NCBI GenBank assembly: GCA_030531305.1
Contig: JAUNNT010000007.1
Coordinates: 1-45,615 of the forward strand
DNA from: Akkermansia sp.
Lineage (GTDB): Bacteria; Verrucomicrobiota; Verrucomicrobiia; Verrucomicrobiales; Akkermansiaceae
Direction: 5' to 3'
DNA length: 45,615 nt
Shown: positions 14,365 to 23,110 of the stretch, one piece after another
Layout of the letters: each line of letters begins with the position of its first letter
Position numbering within the stretch: the stretch's first letter is position 1
Position numbers and translations under genes: made by a program
The notes under the pieces: model-generated
The model's input: only the letters and a program-made list of their open reading frames with translations
Told to the model about the DNA's origin: nothing
Databases searched by the model: none

Positions 14365-14371
14365 TGCGTGT

Positions 14372-17300
14372 CTAATTCAGTTTGACATCGCCATGTTCCG
14401 CTTGTCGGAGAACAATTTGTGCCAGGAAATCCTTGGTTGACTTGGTGAGGCGCTTGCAGCCGAAGAACGAGGCCACGCCCTTGATGTGGGCATCGCTACC
14501 GACAATGCACTTCAGGTGTCCCTGCATGAATTGTGATGCCCCTGCAATCTCCTTGACGGATATTTCATCCCAATCGCGCGGTCCTTTCTGCCGCAGGGTT
14601 ATCGTTACTGTGTCTTCCTCGTTCGCGGGGCAGTAGAACACGTTCGGGGGGGCGTCACCAATGCTTATGTCGGTGATTTTTCCGATACGCTTGGCGCTCA
14701 TCAGATGGGAGAGGATGAGATTCATGCGGTTCGCCTCCCTCTTGTTGTGCGCAATGCCGAATCTGCGCAACAGGTATTTCAGGCAAACGGGAGACTCCTT
14801 GTCAATGATGTTGAACACCTCATCCATCAGGCTGGTGTCGCTCATTTCAAAGGTGGGGATTGGCAGGATACGCTCATAGGCAACGTATTCCTTGCCTGTC
14901 ACCTCTTCCGGCTTCTCCTGCTCTTTCTCCGGCTGGCTTTCCTCAAGTGCGGGAGCGGCTTCGCCTGATTCCAGCAGGGTAGGCAATTCGCATTCTTCCA
15001 CCGGCCCTGCAGCCTTGTACTCTTCCAGTTTCTTGACGAGCCTGTCCAGGCATGCTTGCGGATGGCGCCACCAATCGACTGCCCAGATGTTGAGCATACG
15101 CCAGCCGTGCATCCGCATGGTTCCGTTGCGCACCACGTCACGGTCGCGCGCCGTGTGGGATGCTGCGTACTCCGGCCCGTCTATCGTGATGCCGCACAGC
15201 ATCCGCTCTTCGTCGTTGGGGTCGGTCACGGCAATGTCCACCCTGTAGTTCGTGGTGCCGATTCCCGTGGCGCATTTCCAGCCTTTCTCCTGCAGTTCGC
15301 GAGCAACGGCAGCGGCTAGACGGTCTCGCCGCAGACGGCTTTCCTCCGCAGAAGACATGGACCCGCTGCGCGCGTATTCCAAGAATGCTTTCAGGTCCGC
15401 CGCGCCGCGCGCCCTGGTTTTGGAGATGTTGATTTCCTCCGGCTTCATGGAAGTGAATACATGCATGGCACAGCGAGCGCGCGTAACTGCCACGTTCAGG
15501 CGCTTTTCTCCACCCGCCAGATTCAGCGGTCCGAACATGGCGGGCATCTTGCCTTTGGCGTCCTTGCCGTAGGTGGTGGAGAAGTAGATGACGCCGCGCT
15601 CGTCACCCTGCACGTTCTCCAGGTTCTTCACGAAGACGTATTCGTGTTCGTCGTCCCCTGAGAAATAGGGCTCCAGCGAGGGGTCTTTGATGCGTTCCTC
15701 CTCCAATAGTTCATTGATGAGTGCCTGTTGAGTGCAGTTGAATGTCACTACGCCCATGCTGGTGGCTTCCGTGTACCGGAATCCCGGTGCGCGCAGCGTT
15801 TCCAGAATGTGGTCCACCACGGCGCGAGCTTCGATGGGGTTCACCCTCTTGGATGCGCCGGATTCGTACACGCCGTTGCAATAGTGGTACTGCACCGCCT
15901 TGTCGTGCGTGCGGGGCGCGGGGAAGGTGGTCATCTTGTTCTCATAGTAGTTCTCGTTGGAGAAGCGGATGAGCGCTTCCGACTTGCTGCGGTAGTGCCA
16001 CGTGAGGTCCATCTGGGGGATGCCGCAAGCCAGGCATTCGTCGAGGATGCTCTCCATGTCCTGCTCTGCAATGGTGTCGTCTCCGTCGTCGGATTGGCTT
16101 CTGCCGAAGAAACTGGTGGGCGGCATCTGGTGCGGGTCGCCCGTGATGATGGCGCTCTTGCCGCGCGCGATAACGCCCACGGCGTCCCAAACGGGGATTT
16201 GGGACGCCTCGTCGAATATCACTACGTCGAACTGTTTGGTATCGGCTGTGAGATACTGGGAGACGGAGAGCGGGCTCATCAGGAAGCAGGGCTTGAGCAA
16301 CGGGGTGATGTTGGGCGTGCTGCTCAAAATTTTTCTCAGGGAGAGGAAGTTTTTCTGCTTGGAGAGCTCGCGTTGCAGGATGGCCGTTTCTTGGCCGAAA
16401 CGAGCAATCGTTCCCGCCTTGCGGGTGAGGAGGTGACGAATGTGGTTGCCGGTGATTTTGCGCAGTCGTTCGTCCCACTGGACGAAATCGCGGATGCGCT
16501 CTTCATGCAGCAGGGGCGAGAACTCGCGCAGCGTTTCCACGCTGTCCACGGCGGCGCGCAATCTCGCACGGGAGAAGTTCACTTCGGCAGCCGCTTCCAA
16601 ATCCTGCGGGGAAACGGCGCCGGAGCGCAGGTTTTCCGCCAGCTCTCCGTAGCCGTTTTCGCGGGCGGCTTGCAGCTGTTTGTTCCAAAGGACGATTTCC
16701 TGCCAGGTGTCCTTGCAGTTGAGCATGCTTTCCGCCCACCCGCGTGCTTCTCCCGGCCCATGCGGTATGAATCCCGTTGATTCGGCCCCCAAGGCATCGG
16801 CAAGTTTCTTTTCAAGCGCTGCAACCTTCTCCTCGGTCTCTTGATTGCGGCTCTGCTCGTCCGCTAGGCGCGCGGTCCCCTCGCCAAGCAGCTTTTCCGC
16901 CAGCGAGGGCGCGTTGTCATGCAACTGCTGCAACTTGTCCGCCAGGATGCGTGCCCTTTGCAGTTCCTTGTCCCCGGTTTCCACTCCCCTGAACAAGGCA
17001 TCAGGCAGGGCGGGAGTGTTGAGCGCCGAGATCTCCTTGCGCAGGTCCCGCATCTCAATGAGCGCCTGTAAGTCTTTCAGGCAATCCGGCTGTTTGGTGC
17101 TGCTGGCGAGCATTTGGAGATAGCGCGCCACCTTTTTCATGGAGAGCCAGCGCAAGGGGGCCGCCTTGAGCATGGTTTGGCGGCATTCCTTGAACCAATC
17201 GCCAAGCTCGGCATCGTCCAGCGCCTTTTCCGGGTACGGAAGCGAGAGGGCCCCTTGCAATTCGCGGTATTTGGCGGCTTTCTCGGCGATTTGCCCCAGC

Positions 17301-20116
17301 GTTTTGAGTGTCTGGGGTGCCTTGTCCGGCATGAGTGCGGCGCAAGCCGTTTCTCCCTCTGCGGCAATCTCCATCATGGTGGGGATGTAGGGGGCTGTCT
17401 TTTTCAGTTCATCTTCGGTGATGCCGAGCTCCTGCCTCAGGTTTTCCGTGGCCTTGTCCTTCTCGCCGGCAAGCTCTGCATACTGCCGCAGCAGCGCGGC
17501 TAGGTCATCCTCCCAGCCGAGAGAGTAGTCGGTGGTGAAGATGCTCTTGGCGCACGCTCCCGCCTTGTCTTGCAATATGCCGTAATGCCTGGCCAATTCA
17601 TGGGTCTGCTGCAACATGGCCGCCTTGCGCTCTGCGGTACAGGTCAAGGGGTTGTCTTCCATGGGCTTGAACACGGGCAGGTGGCCGTGGGCTGCTATGT
17701 TGCTGATGTCGTGGTACAGGCTGGTGCCGTCCGGGTACGGTCTGTGGACTTCCCACGGAAGGAGGTTGAGTTGGTAACGCAGGGTGGCCATGGAGAATGT
17801 CTCCTGGTCCCAAGAATCTTCCGGCAGGGAAACGCTCACGCTTTCCACGGCTGCGCGGAACTGGTTCATCACCTCCTTCATGAGGCACTTGTTGGAGTGG
17901 AGCTCCAGGCAGAAATCCCCCAGCCCTATTTTGTTCAGGCGCTTGCGCACCACTTCCAGCGCCACGGCCTTTTCCGCCACGAACAGCACCGTCTTGCCAT
18001 GCCCCAGGCAGTGGGCAATCATGTTGGCAATCGTTTGGCTCTTGCCCGTGCCCGGTGGCCCCACCAGTACGAAATTTTTCCCGCGTGCCGCTGCCAGTAC
18101 TGCCGCCAGCTGCGATGAATCACAGGGCAGGGGCGTGAACACCTTCGTGGCATCTACCTCGTTGTCCAGCGAATACGGGTCGGGGAAGCCTTCCTGCTCG
18201 GGGAAGCGCCCGCGGTTCTCCGTGGCCAAATGGCCGACAATGGGATGCTTGAGCAGTGCCTCCCTGCGGTCGCTCATGTCTTTCCACATCAGGTATTTGG
18301 CGAACGAATAGGATCCGATGGAGCATGTCTCCACCACTTCCCACCCTTGCATACGGCTCACCGCCTTGCGTACGATGTCGAAGATGCGCGCCACGTCCAG
18401 CCCGGAATCGTCCGTGGGCAAGTCTCCCGCTAGCTCCGGCAGTTTGATGCCGAATTCCTTGTCCAGCAGTTCCAGCAGCGTGTGGTTGATGAGCGCGGTC
18501 TCATCCATCCCGCGCAGCGTGTAGTCCGCGCGGGCGCTGGTGCGGCTGATGCGCACGGGCATGAGAAGGATGGGCGCCAGCATCGAATGGTTGCTGCGGT
18601 CCCCCTGCTGCACCCAGCGCAGGAACCCGCATGCGATGTACAGCGTGTTGGCACCGCTTTCCTCCATTTCTCGGCGAGATGCTCCTTCCAGTCGTTGCAG
18701 GGAGCGGACCAGCGCGGTGCGGGGCATGCTGGAAAGCAGCTCCCTCTTGGGGAACATGGCATAGGCGGCTTCCGACAAGATGCGGCGCGTGTCGTCATTG
18801 TCCGCCTGTTGGACGCGGGTATATGCGCGCCAAGCCGTTTCCGGCAGCGCTTTGATTTTGAATGCGGCACCGGCGGCCAGACCGTCTTCCAATGCCGGGA
18901 CATCCGGGATGACGAGCTGGATGTTTCCCCTTTCATTCAGGCAGGTGTTGAGCAGATTGTTCCGCAGGGAGAGGTCCAGCAGCTTGTGCTGCCACCTCTC
19001 GATACGTCCGGAGGGTTGGGAGGAGAGGATTTCATCCGTCAATTGGATGCCTTTCTTCTCCAGCCCGCTGAGGTTGGGTTCCGTGCATTCTCCCAGTATG
19101 GGCTTGATGCCTTCCGTGTGCCAAATTTGCTCAAGGTCCAGGCAAACGAAATAATCTCCCGTGCTGACGGAGCGGATGCTGTGGGTAGCCGCTTCAACCG
19201 CCGTCTTGAAGTTGAAAGCTTCCTCGTGAACGTTGAGGGCTGTCGTTTCAATGGGAAGAATTTCCCCTTGCTCAACCAGGTTGCGAATGGTGGCAATCGG
19301 GGTGTATGTGAGGGAGGGAAGCGCGGTGTTGCTCATCATGATTCCCACAAATGCATGGCCGTGTGTCAGGAATACTAGGGGATTGAGCCTCAGCCGTGCG
19401 GCACATGCGGCAAACAACAGGGTAGAATCCAAGCATAGGGATTTGCCTTCCTCCTTGATGATGGAAGGAGTGCGCACCCGCTGGCCCACCGTGAAATCGA
19501 GGATTCCCCGCTCTTCCGGGATGTTGTATTCTATACCGTATTCAAGCAGCAAATCCCATAGGCTATTCAATACGGCGCATATGCCTTCCTTGTCGCAATC
19601 ATAGCCGGGCCACACCAGTTCATCCGCCGGATGCTCAATTTTGAGAGAGAGCCGCAAATCCTCCATGATGGCGTTCACCACAGGGTCGTACGGCAGCGTG
19701 AGCGCGGCAAGTGTTTCCGGAAATTCGTGGCCGCCAGCCCAGGCGTTGAAGGCCAGCCATTGGAAATCGTCTTCCTTTTGGGCAAGGAGATTCCCCTCAT
19801 CGTCCTCCAGTTCCACTACCACATGCCCTGGTACTTCGTCTCGTAGCTTGATAAGCTTGTCGTAGTCGTATTTCGGGCATTCCCCGGTCAGGATAAAAGG
19901 CTCGCCCGCCTTGATCTCTCCCAGCGTGTAATGCTGCGGCGCGGCGAAATCCGGCGAGAACTTGATGTTCAAACGCATCCCCTGCAAGTCGGTGTCGCTG
20001 TTGATGGTGATGTTCCATACCACAGACCGCCCGTTTTCCAAATAGATAATGGACGAGTACTTGTTGATGATGAGGTCTATCCTAACGTTTGGGACTCCTT
20101 GGGTGTCGGCGTTCAT
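14372..20116 (-). CDS. DUF4011-SF1 helicase-nuclease protein (1914 aa), hhe-like anti-phage candidate
   Basis: One very large protein. Order of parts: an N-terminal region with a transglutaminase-like stretch (SLCLDSTLLFAACAARL then THGHAFVGI, about 225-262); DUF4011 with SLRNNLLNTCLNERG; an SF1 helicase with Walker A VGPPGTGKSQTIANM (about 684-698), a coiled-coil-rich insertion, Walker B FDEASQIP (about 1300), and C-terminal motifs VQGDERGVI and LNVAVTRARC; a Vsr/DUF559-type nuclease-like domain (YRVDIAV ... CGITIDGPEYAASHTARDRD, about 1620-1660); and a C-terminal DUF3320-like domain. As I recall, DUF4011-helicase-Vsr proteins were proposed as a stand-alone defence system (hhe). A perfect TTGACA-N16-TATAAT promoter precedes it. 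Codon use is slightly less GC-rich than its neighbours. Confidence 0.85.
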   Translation of the reverse strand: MNADTQGVPNVRIDLIINKYSSIIYLENGRSVVWNITINSDTDLQGMRLNIKFSPDFAAPQHYTLGEIKAGEPFILTGECPKYDYDKLIKLRDEVPGHVVVELEDDEGNLLAQKEDDFQWLAFNAWAGGHEFPETLAALTLPYDPVVNAIMEDLRLSLKIEHPADELVWPGYDCDKEGICAVLNSLWDLLLEYGIEYNIPEERGILDFTVGQRVRTPSIIKEEGKSLCLDSTLLFAACAARLRLNPLVFLTHGHAFVGIMMSNTALPSLTYTPIATIRNLVEQGEILPIETTALNVHEEAFNFKTAVEAATHSIRSVSTGDYFVCLDLEQIWHTEGIKPILGECTEPNLSGLEKKGIQLTDEILSSQPSGRIERWQHKLLDLSLRNNLLNTCLNERGNIQLVIPDVPALEDGLAAGAAFKIKALPETAWRAYTRVQQADNDDTRRILSEAAYAMFPKRELLSSMPRTALVRSLQRLEGASRREMEESGANTLYIACGFLRWVQQGDRSNHSMLAPILLMPVRISRTSARADYTLRGMDETALINHTLLELLDKEFGIKLPELAGDLPTDDSGLDVARIFDIVRKAVSRMQGWEVVETCSIGSYSFAKYLMWKDMSDRREALLKHPIVGHLATENRGRFPEQEGFPDPYSLDNEVDATKVFTPLPCDSSQLAAVLAAARGKNFVLVGPPGTGKSQTIANMIAHCLGHGKTVLFVAEKAVALEVVRKRLNKIGLGDFCLELHSNKCLMKEVMNQFRAAVESVSVSLPEDSWDQETFSMATLRYQLNLLPWEVHRPYPDGTSLYHDISNIAAHGHLPVFKPMEDNPLTCTAERKAAMLQQTHELARHYGILQDKAGACAKSIFTTDYSLGWEDDLAALLRQYAELAGEKDKATENLRQELGITEDELKKTAPYIPTMMEIAAEGETACAALMPDKAPQTLKTLGQIAEKAAKYRELQGALSLPYPEKALDDAELGDWFKECRQTMLKAAPLRWLSMKKVARYLQMLASSTKQPDCLKDLQALIEMRDLRKEISALNTPALPDALFRGVETGDKELQRARILADKLQQLHDNAPSLAEKLLGEGTARLADEQSRNQETEEKVAALEKKLADALGAESTGFIPHGPGEARGWAESMLNCKDTWQEIVLWNKQLQAARENGYGELAENLRSGAVSPQDLEAAAEVNFSRARLRAAVDSVETLREFSPLLHEERIRDFVQWDERLRKITGNHIRHLLTRKAGTIARFGQETAILQRELSKQKNFLSLRKILSSTPNITPLLKPCFLMSPLSVSQYLTADTKQFDVVIFDEASQIPVWDAVGVIARGKSAIITGDPHQMPPTSFFGRSQSDDGDDTIAEQDMESILDECLACGIPQMDLTWHYRSKSEALIRFSNENYYENKMTTFPAPRTHDKAVQYHYCNGVYESGASKRVNPIEARAVVDHILETLRAPGFRYTEATSMGVVTFNCTQQALINELLEEERIKDPSLEPYFSGDDEHEYVFVKNLENVQGDERGVIYFSTTYGKDAKGKMPAMFGPLNLAGGEKRLNVAVTRARCAMHVFTSMKPEEINISKTRARGAADLKAFLEYARSGSMSSAEESRLRRDRLAAAVARELQEKGWKCATGIGTTNYRVDIAVTDPNDEERMLCGITIDGPEYAASHTARDRDVVRNGTMRMHGWRMLNIWAVDWWRHPQACLDRLVKKLEEYKAAGPVEECELPTLLESGEAAPALEESQPEKEQEKPEEVTGKEYVAYERILPIPTFEMSDTSLMDEVFNIIDKESPVCLKYLLRRFGIAHNKREANRMNLILSHLMSAKRIGKITDISIGDAPPNVFYCPANEEDTVTITLRQKGPRDWDEISVKEIAGASQFMQGHLKCIVGSDAHIKGVASFFGCKRLTKSTKDFLAQIVLRQAEHGDVKLN

Positions 20117-20139
20117 GGTTGGGTGGTCGTTACCCGCCC

Positions 20140-20167
20140 ATTATACATGAAGCCGTCACCCTGTCAA
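20140..20167 (-). promoter_or_regulatory. Consensus promoter of the DUF4011 helicase
   Basis: On the minus strand TTGACA (complement of 20162-20167), 16 bases, TATAAT (complement of 20140-20145): a full consensus match. The leader to ATG 20116 would be about 17 bases. Such a strong promoter is unusual for a defence gene. Confidence 0.8.
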
Positions 20168-20224
20168 GCAGGGGGCACCGCGGCGGAAATGCGATGGGAT
20201 TGCGCGTCGTGCTGTTCTGGCTGC

Positions 20225-20252
20225 TTGACAGGCGGCTGTGTGCATGTAAAAT
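20225..20252 (+). promoter_or_regulatory. Promoter of the ion channel gene
   Basis: TTGACA (20225-20230), 16 bases, TAAAAT (20247-20252). A ribosome site GGGGAG lies just before ATG 20265. It diverges from the helicase promoter. Confidence 0.75.
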
Positions 20253-20264
20253 TAGGGGAGATAT

Positions 20265-21053
20265 ATGGTAGAGAAACTACAGCGGTTGACGCACAGTCTT
20301 TGGTTCGACATTCTGGTTGCGGCGGTGATTCTGGTGATGGCCGTGAACCTGGGCGTGGGGCTGAGCTGCCCGGAGCATGCCGGCATCGTGGATATGATAG
20401 ACCTGGCATGCTCGATTTTCTTCTGTGTGGAGCTGCTGGTGCGCATTTTGGCATACGGGCGCAAGTGGTACCGCTTCTTCACCAAGGGGTGGAACCTGTT
20501 CGACTTCGTGCTCATCACGGTGACAATGCTGCCGTTCTTCAGCAGCGGGTTGTTGGTGCTGCGCCTGTTCCGCGTGATGAAGCTCGGGCGTCTCTTCTCC
20601 GCCACGCCGCAGCTGCGCATTCTGGTGACGGCGCTGTTCCGCAGCCTGCAACCCGCCGCCGGAGTGTGTTTGCTGCTCCTTATCGTTATCTACATCTATG
20701 CGGTGATTGGTACGGAAGCCTTTGCCGGCAACGACCCGCAGCGTTTCGGTTCGCTTGGCGTCAGTCTCGCGTCCATGTTCAGTTTCATCACCATTGACGA
20801 CTGGTACGATGCCTTTCTGACCGCCTACTACGGCAGCGATGTCATTCAATCCCGCGTGGGCAACGGCGTGCTGGCCGTACCCAGCGCGCCGGAAGCGTTC
20901 GGCTGGCAGGCCGCGCTGTTCTTCTTCTCCTACATGATGATGGTCACGTTCATCATCATGAACCTCTTTGTGGGCGTGGTGATTTCCAGTCTCCAGTCCG
21001 CCCACGAATACCTCAAGGAATGCCACTGCAAGAAAAACGAAGACGGCGAGTGA
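20265..21053 (+). CDS. Voltage-gated cation channel subunit (BacNav/CavAb-like)
   Basis: 262 residues with the single-repeat six-helix plan; four copies would form the channel in the inner membrane. S1 is about residues 13-33, S2 ACSIFFCVELLVRILAYG, S3 FDFVLITVTMLPFF, and S4 LVLRLFRVMKLGRL with four basic residues at every third position, the voltage-sensor pattern. S5 is LLLLIVIYIYAVIG, and the pore helix ends in the filter TIDDWYD. S6 is YMMMVTFIIMNLFVGVVISSL, with the conserved Asn. A pore-loop insertion of about 25 residues separates filter and S6. The filter matches the Asp-rich form that makes engineered CavAb calcium-selective, so Ca2+ selectivity is inferred. It has its own promoter; no obvious operon partner. 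Confidence 0.88.
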   Translation: MVEKLQRLTHSLWFDILVAAVILVMAVNLGVGLSCPEHAGIVDMIDLACSIFFCVELLVRILAYGRKWYRFFTKGWNLFDFVLITVTMLPFFSSGLLVLRLFRVMKLGRLFSATPQLRILVTALFRSLQPAAGVCLLLLIVIYIYAVIGTEAFAGNDPQRFGSLGVSLASMFSFITIDDWYDAFLTAYYGSDVIQSRVGNGVLAVPSAPEAFGWQAALFFFSYMMMVTFIIMNLFVGVVISSLQSAHEYLKECHCKKNEDGE

Positions 21054-21131
21054 CCCGCGGGCGGTATTGTTATACGCCCCCGCTTATCGGGTGGAGGCTG
21101 CGTTGGCGAAGAGGTCAACCCCAATCAACCA

Positions 21132-21249
21132 CCATTTGTAAAAAAAATGCCATTTCTTTTACAAATGGGCGCCGACGTGTAAAGAAAATCGGATTTTTTT
21201 TACATGACAGGCTGCTCATGTTAAGAAAATGGCGTTTTTTTAACATGAG
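21132..21249. repeat. Three tandem hairpins with a common AT core
   Basis: H1 21132-21168 (CCATTTGTAAAA arm, 12 bp plus 4 bp after one mismatch), H2 21178-21204 (TGTAAA arm, core AAAATCGGATTTT), H3 21215-21249 (CTCATGTTAA arm, 10 bp plus 4). Each has a unique outer stem, a run of A paired with a run of T, one non-Watson-Crick pair just inside the stem, and a GC-containing centre. The 329-base gap 21054-21382 holds nothing else except the ClC promoter. Confidence 0.8.
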
Positions 21250-21342
21250 GATGGGGTTGTGGCAGTTGAAAACGGAACTTGTGGTGAAAATGCAAGGGCG
21301 CGACCAAGAAAGGCTGCAGGTTCCATCCATGAACATTGGGGA

Positions 21343-21370
21343 TTGCAGTGGGGCGGGGGCATGGTACAAT
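21343..21370 (+). promoter_or_regulatory. Candidate promoter of the ClC gene
   Basis: TTGCAG (21343-21348), 16 bases, TACAAT (21365-21370), 12 bases before ATG 21383. The -10 box is good; the -35 box is weak. Confidence 0.5.
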
Positions 21371-21382
21371 AACGGGGTAACC

Positions 21383-23110
21383 ATGAACCGCTCTGCGTAC
21401 CAGCGCCGGATGATTCTGCTGCGGGTGATGCGCGCGCTGCGCATCGGGCAGCGGCAGGCGGTGCTGGTGCAGGCGCTTCTGCTGGGATTGGCGGGGGCGG
21501 TGGCCGCGCTGGCGTTCGATGCGGCCATCGACGCGGTGCAGTGGGTGTATACGGGGTTTGCGGGCACGCGGGTGGACTGCTTCATGCAGCTGCCGGGCTG
21601 GGCGCGGGTGCTGCTGCCCGCCGCGGGCGCCATCCCCGCCGCGCTGGTGCTGCTGTTTGCCATGCGGGTGGATAAACGCCCCATGCCGGAATACATGGAA
21701 TCCTTTTCCCTGGGGGACGGGCGCCTGCCGCGCCGCCAGGGCTTCCTGCGCAGCCTCTCCGCCGTGCTCTCCATGGGCAGCGGTGCGTGCATCGGCAAGG
21801 TGGGTGCCATCATCCAGGCCTCCGCCGTGGCGGCCTCCGCCGCGGGGCGCGCGCTGCACGTGTCGCCCTCCCGCCTGCGCCTGCTGGTGGGCTGCGGTGC
21901 GGCGGCGGGCATGACCGCGGCCATCCACACGCCGCTGAGCGCCTGCCTGTTCGTGTGCGAGGTGCTGGTGGGCACCTTCAGCATCGGCTACATGGCGCCG
22001 CTGCTGGCGGCCACGTGCGCATCGTACGCGCTGCTGTGGCTGCTGGGCCGCACGGATGCCATTTTCGCGGCGGACGCGGCGCAGGTGGTGTTCGGCTCCC
22101 TGCCGCAGGTGCTGCTCTGCGCGGTGCTGGCGGTGGCCGCCGCCCTCTGCGGGCGCGGATGGGTGTGGTTCGCCAAATGGATGCGCCGCCGGCTGGACGG
22201 CCGCCCCGCGTGGCTGCCCGTGCGCATGGCCGCGGCGGGCCTGCTGGTGGGCCTGGTGGCGTATGAAGACCCCTTCATCGTGGGCAATGGGCAGGAGGCC
22301 ATCGCGGCCCTGCTGGCGGGCTGCCTGTCCACCCCGCATGCGGCGGCGCTGCTGTGCTGCAAGGTTCTGCTGGTGGCGGTGGTGTTCGGCGTGGGCACCA
22401 TGGGCGGCATGCTCATGCCCACGCTGATGATCGGCTGCTTCATCGGCGCCCTGTTCGGCGCGGGCGCGGAATCCCTGGGGCTTGGCGGCGGCGCGCTGCC
22501 GTACGCCCTGGTGGGCATGGCCGCCTTCTTCGGCGTGGCCGCGCGCGCCCCCATCACCGCACTCCTTCTGGTGATTGAATTCACCATGAACGCCTCGCTC
22601 ATCTTCCCGCTCATGCTAGCCGTGGCCGTGGCATACGGCGTGGCGCGCCTCCTGCCCGCCGGCTCCCTCTACGACCGCGCGCCCGACTCCACCGCGTTCG
22701 ACGGCCCGCCCTCCGCCCTCCGCGTGGAGGACGTCATGCGCCGCAGCCCCCTGCAGGTGCACACCTCCGCCCCGCTGGACCGCGTGCTCCACCAGATGCT
22801 CCGCCACCCCGACGAGAACGTGCCCGTGGTGGGGGCCGACGGCCGCTACGCCGGGCTGATCCTGGCATCGGAACTCCCCGACACCCCGGACGGTTCCGCC
22901 CCCGCCGCATCCGACCTCATGCACGCGGACGCGCCCGTCCTCTCACCCTCTGACGGCTTGCCAGAGGCCCTGCGCGCCTTCCAATCCACCCCGCTCAACT
23001 CCCTCCCCGTGGTGAACCCCGCCACCGGCGCCCTCTGCGGCATCGTCTCCCGCACGGAGCTCTACCGCACCGGAATCCTCCTCCTCCGCAAGGCCGTGGC
23101 CCGCGATTGA
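21383..23110 (+). CDS. ClC-family chloride channel/transporter with CBS domains
   Basis: 575 residues. The ClC core spans about residues 1-430: GSGACIGKVGAIIQ is the region normally reading GSGxxxGREGP, CGAAAGMTAAIHTPLSACLFVCE follows, then GVGTMGGMLMPTLMIGCFIGALFG and GVAARAPITALLLVIEF. Two CBS domains fill about 450-575 (VEDVMRRSPLQVHT, ADAPVLSPSDGLPEAL). The gating glutamate of GREGP is Val here and the following Pro is Ala, a pattern known from ClC-K channels; this argues for passive channel behaviour rather than Cl-/H+ exchange. I chose ATG 21383 because it follows a TACAAT box, while the upstream open frame crosses the three hairpins. Monocistronic; converges on the sulfatase. Confidence 0.9.
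   Translation: MNRSAYQRRMILLRVMRALRIGQRQAVLVQALLLGLAGAVAALAFDAAIDAVQWVYTGFAGTRVDCFMQLPGWARVLLPAAGAIPAALVLLFAMRVDKRPMPEYMESFSLGDGRLPRRQGFLRSLSAVLSMGSGACIGKVGAIIQASAVAASAAGRALHVSPSRLRLLVGCGAAAGMTAAIHTPLSACLFVCEVLVGTFSIGYMAPLLAATCASYALLWLLGRTDAIFAADAAQVVFGSLPQVLLCAVLAVAAALCGRGWVWFAKWMRRRLDGRPAWLPVRMAAAGLLVGLVAYEDPFIVGNGQEAIAALLAGCLSTPHAAALLCCKVLLVAVVFGVGTMGGMLMPTLMIGCFIGALFGAGAESLGLGGGALPYALVGMAAFFGVAARAPITALLLVIEFTMNASLIFPLMLAVAVAYGVARLLPAGSLYDRAPDSTAFDGPPSALRVEDVMRRSPLQVHTSAPLDRVLHQMLRHPDENVPVVGADGRYAGLILASELPDTPDGSAPAASDLMHADAPVLSPSDGLPEALRAFQSTPLNSLPVVNPATGALCGIVSRTELYRTGILLLRKAVARD

What the first reader, a model, noticed from the sequence alone, without database searches (positions are those of the whole stretch)
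20750..20900. Natural voltage-gated channel with the calcium filter TIDDWYD
Most bacterial channels of this type have TLESW-like filters and pass Na+. The Asp-Asp-Trp-x-Asp pattern here equals that engineered into NavAb to make calcium-selective CavAb (TLDDWSD). S4 keeps four regularly spaced basic residues, and a pore insertion of about 25 residues precedes S6.
Basis: partly seen in the sequence, partly recalled or inferred. Interest (0 to 1): 0.6.

Follow-up and report, generated by a model that had tools for sequence, protein, structure and literature searches.

The report
Bacterial channel with triple-aspartate calcium-like filter
The window holds an intact gene for a bacterial voltage-gated ion channel whose filter naturally carries the three aspartates that researchers once engineered to make a sodium channel pass calcium, although well-studied similar channels suggest it could instead be a sodium channel that calcium blocks.

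Summary
An intact 262-residue Ion_trans gene lies at 20265-21053 (+). Its filter is TIDDWYD (aa 176-182, nt 20790-20810). S4 has R100/R103/K106/R109, the charge-transfer residues are present, and about 21 extra residues lie between filter and S6. AlphaFold2 (pLDDT 90.7) gives the NavAb/NavMs/CavAb fold.

D3, D4 and D7 match CavAb, and that filter favours Ca2+ in three canonical scaffolds. But the long P2-S6 loop and acid-rich filter resemble the NavPp/CavMr ("AnclNav") group. There, published D4 filters give Ca2+ block or weak selectivity, and CavMr selects Ca2+ through Gly4. The closest relative (48-49%, same genus) has TFEGWQE, a Gly4 filter. The pair's place in the tree is unresolved.

DDW is not unique: TGDDW[ST]D occurs in eight same-genus genomes, and TLDDW[KR] recurs in the family.

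New context: the gene sits with an anti-phage ProA gene in a ~6.95 kb segment missing from a sister species. The only other clade member adjoins an Avs4-like gene. Other ProA loci lack the channel (29 of 29), so a functional defence link is speculative.

Verdict: a new variant of a known kind, directly testable by patch clamp.

The parts
20265..21053 (+). Voltage-gated cation channel gene, 262 aa, six transmembrane segments, short C-terminal tail
   Evidence: frame; Ion_trans E 8.1e-38; fold
20790..20810 (+). Selectivity filter TIDDWYD, aa 176-182
20559..20597 (+). S4 voltage sensor with R100, R103, K106, R109
20418..20507 (+). S2-S3 stretch with F53, E56 and D80, which match the charge-transfer residues recalled from NavAb
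   Evidence: invariant in 57 rows, coordinates; role recalled
20832..20903 (+). Long loop between P2 helix and S6 (about aa 190-213), about 21 residues longer than in TLESWSM channels, no cysteine
20225..20260 (+). Promoter-like TTGACA-16-TAAAAT (20225-20252) and Shine-Dalgarno-like AGGGGAG (20254-20260)
14369..21324 (.). About 6.95 kb segment (ProA + channel + hairpin array) absent from the orthologous site of sister genome G031, where 22 other bases lie between the flanks
14372..20116 (-). Divergent neighbour: anti-phage ProA / PDC-S37, DUF4011 helicase-nuclease, 1914 aa
21132..21249 (.). Three AT-rich palindromic repeats of period 41 behind the channel, inside the variable segment

Best explanation
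A homotetrameric, depolarisation-opened cation channel of the bacterial Nav/Cav fold. Four subunits place 12 aspartates (D178, D179, D182, four of each) around the pore mouth. The most likely result is a pore that binds Ca2+ tightly and passes it in preference to Na+, letting Ca2+ in when the membrane depolarises. Shown here: intact gene, predicted fold, voltage-sensor residues, filter sequence, rare and patchy occurrence in a variable segment. Inferred: tetramer, voltage gating, any current, Ca2+ preference.
For: Fold: pLDDT 90.7, best solved matches NavMs, CavAb, NavAb, Z 18.5 to 19.1 over 215-217 residues. Sensor: R100, R103, K106, R109, F53, E56, D80. Filter: D3, D4, D7 as in filters that give Ca2+ preference in NaChBac, NavAb and NsvBa (PCa/PNa about 30 in the last; PMC4225499 passage; PMC4436565 and PMC10120453 passages). 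Sister L003 has the Gly4 filter TFEGWQE, the CavMr kind of solution, and its pore module's best solved matches are L-type Cav chains.
Against: Filters with D4 in NavPp and CavMr backbones are Ca2+-blocked or weakly selective (PMC7041947 sections 8, 9). Tyr at position 6 was not tested in what I read, and position 6 matters in CavMr. One tree gathers the pair with the NavPp-type core (49/62), another keeps it outside (97/88). No functional data.
Confidence: 0.52

Rival explanations
1. A NavPp-like channel: it passes Na+ (or is poorly selective), and Ca2+ lodges in the aspartate-rich mouth and blocks it.
For: NavPp TLEDWTD has PCa/PNa 0.308 with Ca2+ block; TLEDWSD and TLEDWAD on that backbone stay blocked; CavMr G4D falls to 7.73. 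The window shares the long P2-S6 loop of TLEDWTD channels.
Against: NavPp keeps Glu at position 3; D3 with D4 and D7 was not tested on that backbone in the sections read. The sister has a Gly4 filter. Tree placement with NavPp-type channels is not secure.
Confidence: 0.33
2. A decayed or non-conducting accessory gene product: the pair evolves fast and the protein no longer works as a channel.
For: Long stem branch of the pair. C-terminal region much shorter than in L004 and L005. Rare: 2 of 76 same-genus genomes.
Against: Open frame with promoter-like and ribosome-site-like signals, voltage-sensor and S6 residues kept, confident model.
Confidence: 0.07
3. A membrane-acting component of anti-phage defence: the channel opens when infection depolarises the cell and the ion flow halts phage growth, together with ProA here and the Avs4-like protein in the sister.
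For: Both clade members adjoin defence genes; ProA and channel share a segment absent from sister G031. Of 15 other channel loci (30 neighbours) none has a full-length defence match; 3 of 30 proteins, at 2 loci, have partial or generic-domain hits. Fisher p 0.007, or 0.044 if those two loci count.
Against: 1 of 30 ProA loci has the channel, the window's own. The Avs4-like gene is in 1 of 254 genomes and its N-terminus looks like it has its own nuclease motif (by eye). n is 2 and the hypothesis was formed after the fact. Insertion hotspots gather defence genes anyway.
Confidence: 0.08

Closest known systems
CavAb (engineered NavAb, TLDDWSD) and the NaChBac TLDDWAD mutant
   Same: Fold (Z 18.5 to the CavAb-series entry 4ms2_A); T1, D3, D4, W5, D7 of the filter
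   Different: Natural, not engineered; I2 and Y6; about 21 extra residues before S6; 28% identity in the structural alignment; selectivity unmeasured
NavPp and the TLEDWTD channels of the AnclNav group
   Same: Acid-rich filter with D4 and D7; long P2-S6 loop starting YGS/YGC
   Different: D instead of E at position 3, Y at position 6, no loop cysteines, very short C-terminal tail; tree placement unsure. NavPp itself was not in hand
CavMr (TLEGWVD), native prokaryotic calcium channel
   Same: One-domain channel with a long P2-S6 loop (as described in PMC10120453); the sister L003 has a Gly4 filter
   Different: The window has D4, not the G4 that CavMr needs; no loop disulfide possible. CavMr itself was not in hand
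L003, channel of same-genus genome G019 (TFEGWQE)
   Same: 48-49% identity, same loop type, sister at 100/100, short tail, defence-gene neighbour
   Different: Filter differs at five of seven positions (2, 3, 4, 6, 7), with Gly at position 4
TGDDW[ST]D channels in eight same-genus genomes and TLDDW[KR] channels of the family
   Same: DDW in the filter; TGDDW[ST]D and one TLDDWKD also have D7
   Different: Distant sequences (24-31% identity for the TGDDW type); Gly at position 2 or Lys/Arg at position 6; different loops

Membership tests
Bacterial one-domain Nav/Cav channels (BacNav fold) | Ion_trans domain with S1-S6, P1 helix, filter, P2 helix | tested here: met
Bacterial one-domain Nav/Cav channels (BacNav fold) | S4 with regularly spaced basic residues and acidic charge-transfer partners | tested here: met
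   R100, R103, K106, R109; E56, D80
Bacterial one-domain Nav/Cav channels (BacNav fold) | Homotetramer with voltage-gated current | not testable with these tools
   needs expression and recording
AnclNav group (NavPp/CavMr) | Filter like TLESW but with more acidic residues | tested here: met
   TIDDWYD, three acidic residues
AnclNav group (NavPp/CavMr) | Branch separate from canonical BacNavs together with NavPp/CavMr-type channels | tested here: inconclusive
   49/62 with the core in one tree; outside a 41-row core at 97/88 in another; no alternative rejected (p-AU 0.248 to 0.325). NavPp and CavMr themselves not included
CavMr-type calcium channel | Glycine at filter position 4 | tested here: not met
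   D179; the sister L003 does have Gly4
CavMr-type calcium channel | Disulfide in the P2-S6 loop (as described in PMC10120453) | tested here: not met
   no Cys in the loop
CavAb-type calcium-selective filter | D3, D4 and D7 around Trp5 | tested here: met
   TIDDWYD
CavAb-type calcium-selective filter | Ca2+ preferred over Na+ | not testable with these tools
   needs recording in Ca2+ and Na+
Anti-phage defence system component | Conserved gene linkage with ProA | tested here: not met
   1 of 30 ProA loci, the window's own
Anti-phage defence system component | Protection against phage | not testable with these tools
   needs a plaque assay in a laboratory host

The most novel reading that the evidence does not exclude
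A natural calcium channel using the CavAb aspartate mechanism, from a tiny channel clade that travels with anti-phage genes, where voltage-triggered Ca2+ entry acts as a defence response to phage-induced depolarisation.
Probability: 0.06. Interest if true: 0.85.

Novelty: new variant of a known kind. Interest (0 to 1): 0.47.

Why it matters
CavAb is a standard demonstration of how a short filter can be made calcium-selective, but it is artificial, and the native prokaryotic calcium channel described in the papers I read, CavMr, relies on a different residue (Gly4). A native channel with the CavAb aspartates, and a 48-49% identical sister with a Gly4 filter, form a natural pair for asking whether evolution uses both routes and whether filter letters or backbone decide selectivity. 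If Ca2+-selective, it would be a native example of the engineered solution. If Ca2+-blocked, it would show that the motif alone does not predict selectivity.

Tried and rejected
Uniqueness of the filter: rejected. TGDDW[ST]D in 8 of 76 same-genus genomes, TLDDW[KR] in 10 of 28 further family loci including one TLDDWKD, and 2 TLDDWR[TN] in the first 120 rows. The DDW label needs at least 5 changes on the tree.

Firm placement among AnclNavs: tried with three trees and five clade tests or checks; not resolved. The results disagree and long branches are involved.

Obligate partner of ProA or of the Avs4-like protein: not supported.

Operon with the ClC gene downstream: not supported. ClC orthologs at 97% and 83% identity exist in G031 and G001, which have no channel match.

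Phage or plasmid carriage: no close relative. 9 pattern matches in viral contigs, none a relative. 38 plasmid records, all under 60% identity. One faecal record labelled Bacteriophage sp. has a channel with a different filter region.

Rfam: no family at 19900-21700. Mobile-element ends: no target-site duplication seen by eye at the junctions printed.

Literature. No listed paper gives TIDDW as a channel filter (the single hit is an anticoagulant study). The primary CavAb and NaChBac mutant papers (Tang 2014; Yue 2002) were seen only as cited in others.

Full report
What is there. The window carries an intact open frame, ATG 20265 to stop 21053 on the + strand, 262 residues. It has a Shine-Dalgarno-like AGGGGAG four bases before the ATG and a promoter-like TTGACA-16-TAAAAT at 20225-20252 (2 promoter-like sites in the scanned stretch against 0.6 expected). 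Pfam gives Ion_trans, E 8.1e-38. It is the only Ion_trans match found in its genome. The filter TIDDWYD is residues 176-182, nt 20790-20810. S4 carries R100, R103, K106 and R109. F53, E56 and D80, which match the charge-transfer residues recalled from NavAb, are invariant in a 57-row alignment.

Fold. AlphaFold2 on the 57-row alignment gives mean pLDDT 90.7, with P1 helix 164-175, filter, P2 helix 180-189, a loop to 213, then S6. Foldseek's best matches are NavMs, CavAb and NavAb. VIA-align gives Z 19.1 for NavAb 6mvy_A and 18.5 for the CavAb-series entry 4ms2_A, with rmsd 2.3 and 2.7 over 217 and 215 residues. This is a bacterial Nav/Cav fold. It cannot tell Na+ from Ca2+ selectivity.

Relatives and filters. 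In 120 distinct rows the filters were TLEDWTD 56, TLESWSM 19, TLDNWGD 6, TGDDWTD 4, TGDDWSD 4, various TLEGWx forms and others; TIDDWYD occurred once. In 28 later family loci, 10 had TLDDW with K or R next, one of them TLDDWKD. So Asp-Asp-Trp-x-Asp also occurs in TGDDW[ST]D channels of eight same-genus genomes and in TLDDWKD. What is rare is this filter in this loop context. On a 60-row tree DDW versus other needs at least five changes, so DDW does not mark one lineage.

The insertion. Between filter and S6 the window has about 21 more residues than TLESWSM channels. Most TLEDWTD channels have a similar loop, often YGSD or YGCD, with a second cysteine further on in the latter. The window reads YYGSD with no cysteine. 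A review says CavMr has such a loop with a disulfide (PMC10120453, passages). The loop therefore favours kinship with the NavPp/CavMr type, but loops can be gained or lost.

Tree. The window and L003 are sisters at 100/100 in both careful trees and 99 in the quick one, on a long stem. In one tree they join the 36-row core at 49/62; in another a starred branch (97/88) leaves them outside a 41-row core. Joining them to canonical channels (p-AU 0.322), to TGDDW channels (0.248) or to short-loop channels (0.325) is not rejected. The filter and loop columns were left out of all trees. Placement is open.

What the filter should do. For: the aspartate filters TLDDWAD and TLDDWSD give Ca2+ preference in NaChBac and NavAb, and LDDWADG gives PCa/PNa of about 30 in NsvBa (PMC4225499 passage; also PMC4436565 passages, and PMC10120453 passages). 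Against: in NavPp (TLEDWTD) PCa/PNa is 0.308 with Ca2+ block. NavPp T6S and T6A, which copy Ca2+-selective filters, remain blocked. CavMr G4D falls to 7.73, from more than 200 in wild type (PMC7041947, sections 8 and 9 read in full; other passages). The authors conclude that the structural backbone matters as well as the filter. The D3+D4+D7 set was not tested on those backbones in the sections I read. I put Ca2+ preference slightly above even and a Ca2+-blocked Na+ channel at about a third.

The sister. L003, from a same-genus genome, is 48-49% identical and has TFEGWQE with Gly4. The best solved-structure matches of its pore module are L-type Cav alpha-1C chains, where its TFEGW aligns with an identical TFEGW in the third repeat (the higher-scoring domain there is the fourth repeat). 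The window's pore module instead matches bacterial channels best. The two sisters thus carry two different filters of kinds linked to calcium, differing at five of seven positions.

Surroundings. The gene lies divergent to a 1914-residue protein that passes the NCBIfam model for anti-phage ProA (1570 bits, cut-off 1500) and matches PADLOC PDC-S37. Downstream lies a ClC gene, whose likely start is 21383. In genome G031, whose flanks are 96-97% identical, homology stops at window 14368 and resumes at 21325, with 22 bases between. A ~6.95 kb block holding ProA, channel and the hairpin array is therefore present here and absent there. Gain or loss was not polarised: the G001 site has no DNA match to the window upstream of ClC. 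GC is 0.585 in ProA and 0.578 in the channel against 0.642 upstream and 0.723 in ClC. In the L003 genome the channel is followed 23 bp later on the same strand by a 1479-residue protein matching PADLOC Avs4 (E 1e-112).

Is this a defence link? Two of two clade members adjoin defence genes. As a control I scanned two neighbours each at 15 other channel loci (15 of the 19 whose neighbours were listed). None had a full-length defence match; 3 of 30 proteins, at 2 loci, had partial or generic-domain hits. Fisher p is 0.007, or 0.044 if those two loci count; the idea was formed after seeing the neighbours. Against it: 56 of 254 family genomes have ProA, and of the 30 ProA loci examined only the window's had a channel-profile hit. 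The Avs4-like gene occurs in 1 of 254 genomes. Shared insertion hotspots are the simpler explanation.

Novelty. Candidate prokaryotic channels with acid-rich filters like that of CavAb were already reported (PMC7041947, passage), and one native calcium channel is characterised there. The searches listed no paper that I saw to describe a native TIDDW or TLDDW filter, though most subscription journals are absent from the library. I rate this a new variant of a known kind.

Limits. One genome assembly; no functional data; NavPp and CavMr sequences were not in hand; no call names the organism.

Noticed in passing
window 21132-21249: Three palindromic AT-rich repeats with period 41 (TGTAAAGAAAATCGGATTTTTTTTACA type) behind the channel; the stretch folds at -56.5 kcal/mol, z -7.9, and the pattern occurs nowhere else in the genome. 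Function unknown; possibly a terminator or a mobile remnant.
   Followed up: partly
window 20140-20167 (-): A perfect sigma-70-like promoter (12 of 12) for ProA lies divergent to the channel's own promoter-like site in the same short intergenic stretch.
   Followed up: no
L148-L156, L158 (same family, one genus code): A clade of channels with TLDDWK or TLDDWR filters, a positive residue beside the aspartates at position 6, and no long loop. Their selectivity would be worth measuring too.
   Followed up: partly
L011-L015, L130-L132: Eight same-genus genomes carry a distant channel with filter TGDDW[ST]D; it resembles the TGEDW of Cav1.2 domain II named in PMC4436565.
   Followed up: partly
L162 3122-8364 (-): The sister channel stands 23 bp upstream of an Avs4-like gene on the same strand; that gene is found in 1 of 254 family genomes.
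   Followed up: partly
L232 (MT835812.1) 16494-17198: A record labelled Bacteriophage sp. from human faeces holds a one-domain channel whose filter region reads SPDSGIIRPVM, with no TxExW motif, behind a gene that looks like a prepilin peptidase (by eye); the record looks bacterial rather than phage.
   Followed up: no
window 14372-20116 and genome G000 contig C77 52080-56609: The genome holds two ProA-like genes; ProA relatives are in 56 of 254 family genomes, many of them in this genus.
   Followed up: no
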